From the NCBI GenBank assembly GCA_002336975.1, contig DDFA01000081.1:205-12944 (forward strand): 12,740 nucleotides of DNA. Reading direction: 5' to 3'. Positions 5,977 to 6,642 of the stretch are shown piece by piece. Position numbers and translations under genes: made by a program. Source of the DNA: Phyllobacteriaceae bacterium UBA1940 (GTDB lineage: Bacteria; Pseudomonadota; Alphaproteobacteria; Rhizobiales; Rhizobiaceae). Within the stretch, counting starts at the first letter, position 1; every line of letters starts with the position of its first letter. The notes below the pieces were generated by a model. That model saw only the letters and a program-made list of their open reading frames with translations. It ran no database searches and was not told the origin of the DNA.

Positions 5977-6642
5977 TCAGGCCCTTGCCGGCGCGGCAAT
6001 CGGGAATTCCACCCCGGCGCCGCGCAGGGCGGCCTGGCCATTGGGGTTCTTGTGCAGATATTGCTGGTGTTGGTCTTCCGCGTAGTAGAACTCGCGCGCC
6101 GGTCCGATTTCGGTGGTGATCCGGTCGCGCCTGGCGTCCGACAGCGCCGCCTGATAGGCGTCGCGCGAGGCGAGCGCCTCGGCCAGCTGCGCCTCGCCGG
6201 TCGCATAGATCGCCGAGCGGTAGGCGGTGCCGACATCGTTGCCCTGGCGCATGCCCTGCGTCGGGTCGTGCCCCTCCCAGAAGATTTTCAGCAGTTCGGC
6301 CAGGCTGATCCGGGACGGGTCGAAAACCACCCTGACCGTTTCGGCGTGGCCGGTGAGGCCGGTCATCGTCTCCTGATAGGTCGGGTTCGGCGTCATGCCG
6401 CCCTGGTAGCCCGACGCGGTGAGCCACACGCCCGGCGTGCGCCACAACAGCCGCTCGGCCGCCCAGAACGGGCCCATGCCGAAATGGATGGTCTCGAAGC
6501 CGTCTGGCGGCGTCGCCTTCAGCGGGCGCTTGAACGCCGCGTGCCGGGCCGCCGTGCGAACCGGGCGGGCGCGCCCCGGCAGCGCCTCGCCCGGCTTGGG
6601 CAGATGCAGCTTCTTGTTCAGCATGTCGCTCAGGAAGAACAT
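5977..6642 (-). CDS. MsrA-like protein lacking all cysteines (probable pseudoenzyme)
   Basis: 221 aa with the full fold and usual length of peptide methionine-(S)-sulfoxide reductase MsrA. Family landmarks are FGMG-FW (54-60), GYQGG (78-82), NPTY (86-89), GHAE (98-101), HDPTQGMRQGNDVGTAYRSAIY (from 125), ITTEI and the ending YYAEDQHQQYLHKNP. Pocket residues are kept: F59, W60, Y79, E101, D136 and Y141. The catalytic motif GCFWGAE, however, reads GPFWAAE, with P58 in place of the nucleophilic cysteine. The other usual cysteine sites are also changed: VCSG to ETMTG (M93), YCGL to QAAL (A204), and the last one near VEFP (212-213). The protein has no cysteine, so normal thiol-based reduction is impossible. 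It is uninterrupted, with AAGGG 5 bases before the ATG at 6642, so it seems maintained rather than decayed. It may bind oxidised methionine, or do something else. It lies 71 bases after the small membrane protein gene and may share its transcript. Confidence 0.88.
   Translation of the reverse strand: MFFLSDMLNKKLHLPKPGEALPGRARPVRTAARHAAFKRPLKATPPDGFETIHFGMGPFWAAERLLWRTPGVWLTASGYQGGMTPNPTYQETMTGLTGHAETVRVVFDPSRISLAELLKIFWEGHDPTQGMRQGNDVGTAYRSAIYATGEAQLAEALASRDAYQAALSDARRDRITTEIGPAREFYYAEDQHQQYLHKNPNGQAALRGAGVEFPIAAPARA

What the first reader, a model, noticed from the sequence alone, without database searches (positions are those of the whole stretch)
5977..6642. MsrA homologue with every cysteine replaced but its substrate pocket kept
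The codons for the catalytic motif read GPFWAAE instead of GCFWGAE, so the nucleophile is proline (P58). The sites matching E. coli Cys86 (M93), Cys198 (A204) and Cys206 (E212 or F213) are also non-cysteine, and no cysteine occurs anywhere in the 221 residues. The residues known to hold methionine sulfoxide in MsrA (the FW pair, E101, Y79, D136, Y141) are all present, the frame is unbroken, and length and ribosome site are normal. Four independent losses cannot be a sequencing error. Inference: a pseudoenzyme, possibly a binder or sensor of oxidised methionine, or an enzyme with another chemistry. The genome may carry a separate functional msrA.
Basis: partly seen in the sequence, partly recalled or inferred. 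Interest (0 to 1): 0.75.

Follow-up and report, generated by a model that had tools for sequence, protein, structure and literature searches.

The report
Cysteine-free methionine sulfoxide reductase relative
A bacterial protein that looks like a well-known repair enzyme for oxidised methionine has lost the sulfur-bearing residues that do the chemistry, yet its shape and binding pocket still seem to be guarded by natural selection, and the same kind of loss is found several times in related bacteria.

Summary
Confirmed: minus-strand ORF 5977-6642 encodes a 221-aa MsrA (PF01625, 184 bits) with no cysteine (P58, M93, A204, F213) and pocket residues F59, W60, Y79, E101, D136, Y141 kept. It sits at the usual msrA locus; a second, cysteine-bearing short MsrA lies elsewhere in the draft genome. 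It is not unique: 11 of 240 collected long-form MsrA proteins lack the nucleophile, and 4 of these have no cysteine at all. The tree needs at least 7-8 changes; one clade is rejected. Plain decay fits poorly: dN/dS is 0.117 on the window branch (1 rejected) and 0.085 on two tips lying after their loss, against about 0.09 elsewhere, and 1 of 72 near-invariant but 40 of 125 variable positions differ from the nearest cysteine form. All 11 also lack T140 and Y203, as do 4 of 229 cysteine forms, so the C-terminal arm probably changed first. Two pairs that diverged after loss show some loosening. Best reading: a recurrent MsrA pseudoenzyme without thiol chemistry, kept most likely because it binds methionine-S-sulfoxide (inferred). 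Six paper searches listed no pseudo-MsrA.

The parts
5977..6642 (-). Cysteine-free msrA orthologue, 221 aa
   Evidence: PF01625 184 bits, TIGR00401 187 bits; no Cys
6469..6471 (-). Codon 58 CCG (Pro); 229 of 240 aligned proteins have Cys here (nucleophile)
6460..6462 (-). Codon 61 GCG (Ala); Gly in 228 of 229 Cys-type proteins
6364..6366 (-).
6031..6036 (-). Codons 203-204 CAG GCC (Gln-Ala) in place of Tyr-Cys (recycling cysteine)
6004..6006 (-). Codon 213 TTC (Phe); Cys in 226 of 229 Cys-type proteins
6463..6468 (-). F59-W60 pair of the pocket, kept
   Evidence: W60 in 240 of 240
6406..6408 (-). Y79, kept pocket residue
6340..6342 (-). E101, counterpart of the general acid Glu94, kept
   Evidence: role of Glu94 from a passage of PMC6210582
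6235..6237 (-). D136, kept pocket residue
6220..6225 (-). A140 (Thr in 211 of 229 Cys-type proteins) next to kept Y141
6714..7031 (-). Small membrane-protein-like neighbour, no Pfam match, conserved upstream of msrA
   Evidence: matched in 20 of the 21 other loci listed
4825..5823 (-). BMP (PnrA-like) ABC substrate-binding protein, conserved downstream of msrA
   Evidence: matched in 19 of the 21 other loci listed

Best explanation
It is a pseudoenzyme made from the chromosomal long-form MsrA by replacing the nucleophile and both recycling cysteines. Shown: no thiol is left in the protein, so the sulfenic-acid and disulfide route of MsrA cannot run in it; the fold, the pocket residues and nearly all other invariant positions are kept; the gene is at the usual msrA locus; loss of the nucleophile arose several times among relatives; and the protein-changing rate stays near that of Cys-type MsrA, also after the loss where that can be measured (G027/G188). 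Inferred: the protein still binds methionine-S-sulfoxide in the pocket, holds it without reducing it, and acts by binding (sensor, trap or shield for oxidised proteins), while the short-form cysteine MsrA elsewhere in the genome does the repair. Inferred order of change: T140 and Y203 first, then the nucleophile, then the recycling cysteines.
For: No cysteine, four replaced codons. Pocket residues among the 11 Cys58-less proteins: W60 11 of 11, Y141 11 of 11, H99 11 of 11, D136 10 of 11, E101 9 of 11, F59 9 of 11 (Y in 2), Y79 8 of 11 (F in 3); the window protein keeps all of them. Window branch dN/dS 0.117, likelihood ratio 41.0 against 1; G027+G188 tips, both after their own loss, 0.085, likelihood ratio 134.7 against 1; background 0.088-0.090 in these two fits. 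Window versus nearest Cys form: 1 of 72 near-invariant and 40 of 125 variable positions differ, Fisher p 3e-8. At least 7 or 8 changes on the tree; one clade rejected, AU p 2e-58. T140 and Y203 both lost in 11 of 11 Cys58-less and 4 of 229 Cys-type proteins. Each of the 6 genomes searched that have a Cys58-less long form also has at least one GCFW-bearing MsrA. The predicted model matches E. coli MsrA best (Foldseek E 6e-26). A C51S MsrA in complex with substrate is PDB 3bqf (figure legend of PMC6210582), so binding without the nucleophile is possible.
Against: No binding or expression evidence. The window branch averages time before and after loss, and DNA of its closest Cys relatives (P0004, P0005, P0008) was not at hand. 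Two Cys58-less pairs that lie after loss differ at 5 and 6 of 72 near-invariant positions, more than any of 12,944 Cys-type pairs that were even somewhat more diverged (mean 0.29, maximum 4). The stem on which G027/G188 lost the cysteine has a raised dN/dS of 0.208 (six-class fit, not significantly better than one ratio: 6.8 for 5 degrees of freedom). Some relatives changed a pocket residue (E101Q in L015 and L054, D136Q in P0012). In the model, residues 131-140, which include D136, have mean pLDDT of only 57. Gene neighbours give no hint: they are the same for Cys-type msrA.
Confidence: 0.5

Rival explanations
1. Slow decay under redundancy: a short-form MsrA covers repair, the long form is no longer needed for catalysis, and only the need to fold without harm keeps the sequence.
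For: All 6 genomes searched that have a Cys58-less long form carry another GCFW-bearing MsrA; losses are scattered; the replacements at position 58 vary (S 4, N 3, P, R, Y, K one each); two Cys58-less pairs change more near-invariant positions than Cys-type pairs do; dN/dS on the G027/G188 stem 0.208.
Against: dN/dS 0.085 on tips wholly after loss and no significant rise on the window branch; pocket residues kept in the window protein, which I take not to be needed for folding alone (inference); no stop inside the matched domain of any of the six long-form genes.
Confidence: 0.32
2. A regulatory decoy or partner: the protein binds thioredoxin, the other MsrA or a client protein rather than methionine sulfoxide as such.
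For: Fold and most invariant positions kept while residues of the C-terminal arm changed in all 11.
Against: The arm that holds the recycling cysteines, by which thioredoxin engages MsrA (general knowledge), is the part that changed; no partner gene is linked specifically to the Cys58-less loci among the neighbours looked at.
Confidence: 0.12
3. A new catalyst that works without thiol, using E101, Y79, Y141 or the residue at 58.
For: Counterparts of the general acid and proton-donor residues are kept in the window protein.
Against: Proline at 58 has no usable side chain, and position 58 differs between lineages.
Confidence: 0.04
4. Assembly or sequencing artefact.
For: The genome is a draft (144 contigs, 81% complete, 5% contamination).
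Against: Open frame; multi-base codon changes; neighbours in the same order as in congeners (BMP 83-86% identical in 5 of 6 and 75% in the sixth); a second near-identical database sequence; other cases in genomes 99-100% complete (G027, G188, G062, G266).
Confidence: 0.02

Closest known systems
MsrA, long form (peptide-methionine (S)-S-oxide reductase, TIGR00401/PF01625; E. coli MsrA 1ff3, 6yev)
   Same: Fold, length, pocket residues; 57% identity to E. coli MsrA chains over about 205 columns (sequence match)
   Different: No nucleophile or recycling cysteine, Q203, A140; cannot form the sulfenic acid or the disulfide
C51S MsrA domain of Neisseria PilB (PDB 3bqf)
   Same: MsrA without its nucleophile, in complex with a substrate (figure legend of PMC6210582, passage seen; entry title)
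   Different: An engineered variant, Ser not Pro, recycling cysteine not lost
STYX-type pseudophosphatases (recalled, from no call)
   Same: Works-like comparison only: catalytic cysteine lost, substrate pocket kept, acts by binding
   Different: Unrelated fold and substrate; binding is known there and only inferred here
MsrA1/MsrA2 of Mesorhizobium huakuii 7653R (PMC13272141, passages seen)
   Same: A related bacterium with two MsrA genes; the double deletion is more severe than the single ones
   Different: Reported to carry the GCFW motif; no Cys-less form is mentioned in the passages seen

Membership tests
PF01625 / TIGR00401 MsrA (by descent) | Profile score over curated cut-off | tested here: met
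   184.4 vs 23.7 bits; 187.2 vs 108.1 bits
PF01625 / TIGR00401 MsrA (by descent) | MsrA fold | tested here: met
   Model mean pLDDT 82.7; best PDB match E. coli MsrA, E 6e-26, TM 0.76/0.80, rmsd 5.4
PF01625 / TIGR00401 MsrA (by descent) | Orthologous locus | tested here: met
   Same order small protein - msrA - BMP as in the 6 congeners (L004-L009)
MsrA reductase (by function) | Catalytic Cys in GCFW | tested here: not met
   GPFW
MsrA reductase (by function) | Recycling cysteine(s) in the C-terminal arm | tested here: not met
   A204, F213
MsrA reductase (by function) | Substrate pocket F-W, Y, E, D, Y | tested here: met
   F59 W60 Y79 E101 D136 Y141 present in sequence; geometry around 131-140 is of low confidence in the model
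MsrA reductase (by function) | Reduces Met-S-O with thioredoxin or DTT | not testable with these tools
   needs an assay
Pseudoenzyme under selection | Catalytic residue lost while the sequence stays constrained | tested here: met
   dN/dS and invariant-site tests; for the window branch they mix time before and after loss
Pseudoenzyme under selection | Retained ligand binding | not testable with these tools
   needs a binding assay
Single conserved Cys-less clade | All Cys58-less proteins on one side of a branch | tested here: not met
   8 changes, AU p 2e-58

The most novel reading that the evidence does not exclude
In the bacterial family to which the window belongs the chromosomal long-form MsrA has been turned, again and again and by the same first steps (T140 and Y203, then the nucleophile), into a thiol-free or nucleophile-free protein that recognises methionine-S-sulfoxide without reducing it: a natural reader of oxidised methionine.
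Probability: 0.33. Interest if true: 0.8.

Novelty: new variant of a known kind. Interest (0 to 1): 0.62.

Why it matters
To my knowledge (recalled, not searched as such) dedicated readers of methionine sulfoxide are hardly known, while enzymes that make and remove it are. A natural pocket that binds the mark without removing it would be such a reader and a ready probe for oxidised proteins. The repeated loss also offers a natural replicate series (Cys-type with altered arm, nucleophile lost, all cysteines lost) for asking how an enzyme becomes a pseudoenzyme.

Tried and rejected
Single Cys-less clade: rejected. A group of G027, G188, G062 and P0060 seen when six trait columns were dropped (86/87) came apart when ten were dropped, so I do not rely on it. 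P0002 with P0012 as one loss: neither shown nor excluded (support 48/0). P0002+P0012+P0006 as one loss: AU p 0.055, not firmly excluded, which would lower the count of losses.

Selenocysteine or recoding: codon 58 is CCG, not TGA. Motif hits that were not MsrA and were dropped: L035 (read), L050, L051 and L053 (no match), L064-L068 (no match). Motif scans: each examined 394 genomes of the family and together found 5 true cases (G000, G027, G188, G062, G266); one search missed G000 because I had left the ATG form out of that pattern. One search examined 289 genomes of the class and found only G000 as a true case; one search examined 151 relatives and found only G000; one search scanned genome contigs and gave two hits, one true (L034). 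These patterns exclude Gly, Arg, Trp, AGY-Ser and Cys codons at 58 and fix nearby residues, so they undercount; I make no claim that other groups lack the form.

Rows left out before counts: P0001 (wrong strand) and the near-copy P0003; of the loci, L011, L025, L030 and L031 (all with Cys at 58) were not put into the 240-row alignment; 3 of the 240 rows duplicate others.

Pairs of independent lineages for G61, Y89, C93, T140, C204 and C213 against loss of Cys58 gave median sign-test p 0.06-0.38, limited to 8 pairs (the part for position 203 was cut from the output, its raw counts are). So the link of T140 and Y203 with Cys loss rests on counts and tree position, not on a significant pair test.

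Full report
What is there. The minus-strand frame 5977-6642 encodes 221 residues with no cysteine. It matches PF01625 at 184.4 bits and TIGR00401 (msrA) at 187.2 bits, far over the cut-offs, and E. coli MsrA over about 205 residues. Codon 58, the nucleophile, is CCG (Pro); codons 93, 204 and 213 are ATG, GCC and TTC. In the 14 Cys-type loci of the codon alignment codon 58 is TGC in 10 and TGT in 4, and codons 204 and 213 are TGC or TGT in all 14. The best AlphaFold2 model (38-row alignment) has mean pLDDT 82.7 and pTM 0.83; a helix starts at residue 59, so P58 sits at a helix start, where proline is tolerated (the last point is general knowledge). Residues 131-140 (mean 57) and both ends are poorly predicted. 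Foldseek ranks E. coli MsrA first, E 6e-26, TM 0.76/0.80, rmsd 5.4.

Where it sits. The window is on contig 36 of a draft genome (3.36 Mb, 144 contigs, 81% complete). The order small membrane-like protein - msrA - BMP substrate-binding protein is that of cysteine-bearing msrA in relatives: among the 21 other loci listed the small protein is matched in 20 and BMP in 19 (L057 and L059 are the same gene). So this is the ordinary msrA locus, not an extra copy. The 6 congeners searched have a Cys-type protein there (6 of 6). The genome also has a short-form MsrA with FAGGCFWCVE (L002) and two MsrB matches.

Others like it. Three protein searches (each lists its best 120, the third with a Cys-less profile and so biased towards such proteins) gave 211 proteins once P0001 and the near-copy P0003 are left out; with 29 loci they make 240 long-form rows, not a random sample. 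Of these 11 lack Cys58 and 229 have it: P0002 (window), P0006, P0012, P0060, P0153, P0174, L034 (Mesorhizobium sp. M7A), L015 (G027), L057 (G188), L056 (G062), L054 (G266). Residue 58 is S in 4, N in 3, and P, R, Y, K in one each. Four of the 11 have no cysteine at all over the residues read: the window protein, P0012, L057 and L054 (the first residues of L054 are not certain). In genomes, searches found 5 true cases among 394 of the family, an undercount.

History. On a tree of 62 rows with six trait columns left out the label needs 7 changes; with ten left out, 8, all forced by supported branches, and holding the 11 together is rejected (AU p 2e-58). I read the changes as losses of a cysteine that the common ancestor had. 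P0006 is sister to Cys-type P0005; L034 is nested with Cys-type P0128 and P0160; L015 and L057 form one pair (100/99) and L056 and P0060 another (100/100). The window protein lies in a ten-row group with P0004-P0012 (98/91); whether it shares its loss with P0012, or with P0012 and P0006, is open.

Selection. I wrote a codon-model fit (Goldman-Yang type, F3x4 frequencies, one dN/dS per branch class, no variation among sites, 15 taxa, 214 codons, topology typed by hand, limited optimiser steps). One ratio for all gives 0.090; a six-class fit is not significantly better (6.8 for 5 degrees of freedom) and gives 0.208 for the G027/G188 stem, 0.142 for G062 and 0.074 for L034. Two-class fits: window tip 0.117 (1 rejected, likelihood ratio 41.0; the values tried from 0.08 to 0.20 cost at most 3.5), G027+G188 tips 0.085 (134.7), G062 tip 0.15 (19.9); Cys-type tips as controls L009 0.126 (15.0) and L010 0.044 (69.1). 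The window branch does not differ significantly from the rest (twice the log-likelihood gain over one ratio is about 0.9). The G027 and G188 tips both lie after their shared loss, so they are the cleaner evidence. Synonymous sites are partly saturated, which limits precision.

A second test needs no synonymous sites. Of 77 positions at least 98.5% alike in the 229 Cys-type proteins, 72 remain after the active-site columns are taken out. Window versus P0005: 1 of 72 differ, against 40 of 125 variable positions (p 3e-8). L015 versus L057, both after loss: 5 of 72 against 44 of 125 (p 5e-6). L056 versus P0060: 6 of 72 against 39 of 125 (p 2e-4). Cys-type pairs with 45-60 variable differences, so slightly more diverged: mean 0.29, maximum 4, in 12,944 pairs, though the positions were chosen for being alike in that group. 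So constraint is strong but looser than in the enzyme, as a changed job would give and as slow decay might too.

Shared steps. T140 and Y203 are absent from all 11 Cys58-less proteins. Among Cys-type proteins T140 is present in 211 of 229 and Y203 in 224 of 229, and both are lost in only 4: P0005, P0128, P0160, P0164. Three of these are close kin of Cys58-less proteins on the tree (P0164 was not in it). Since L034 and P0174 still hold C204 and C213, and P0006 holds C204, the likely order is arm residues first, nucleophile next, recycling cysteines last. In 7 of 11 position 213 is Phe or Tyr. Independent-pair tests had too few pairs to be significant.

Mechanism. Reduction by MsrA needs the nucleophile thiol, a sulfenic acid and then a disulfide with the recycling cysteine; in Neisseria MsrA Glu94 is the general acid and Tyr82 or Tyr134 the proton donor, and a Trp forms the methyl pocket (PMC6210582, passages seen). 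The window protein has the counterparts of the acid, the tyrosines and the tryptophan but none of the thiols, so this route is closed (sequence plus established chemistry). The C51S form was crystallised with a substrate (same passages), so losing the thiol need not end binding. I therefore think a methionine-S-sulfoxide binder is the most likely function (inferred, about one in two), with slow decay under redundancy the chief rival. Each of the six genomes searched that have a Cys58-less long form (G000, G027, G188, G062, G266, G741) has at least one GCFW-bearing MsrA, which fits both readings.

Literature. Paper searches for a pseudoenzyme, inactive or cysteine-less MsrA listed no paper whose title or abstract start is on that subject; two of them found none at all; only listings were seen. 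Passages of PMC13272141 and PMC6210582 were read. The library holds open-licence papers only.

Verdict. A real and well-defined feature; an MsrA by descent and fold, not an MsrA by mechanism; a recurrent pseudoenzyme under selection, with its present job unproven.

Noticed in passing
window 7220-12314: A tRNA-Ser (GGA) at 7220-7309 is followed by type I restriction genes hsdR (7468-10848) and hsdM (10830-12314), which may be an island beside the tRNA.
   Followed up: no
window 6714-7031: A 105-residue membrane-like protein without a Pfam match is conserved next to msrA (20 of the 21 other loci listed); its function is unknown.
   Followed up: partly
L056 (G062), residue 61: This Cys58-less relative reads GNFWCAE: a cysteine three residues after the lost one, which might be a displaced nucleophile.
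   Followed up: no
P0005, P0128, P0160, P0164: Cys-type proteins that already lack T140 and Y203: possible intermediates on the way to loss of the nucleophile.
   Followed up: partly
window 1240-2121: GNAT-like protein (Acetyltransf_5) with a weak, below-cut-off match to the N-acyl amino acid synthase FeeM.
   Followed up: no
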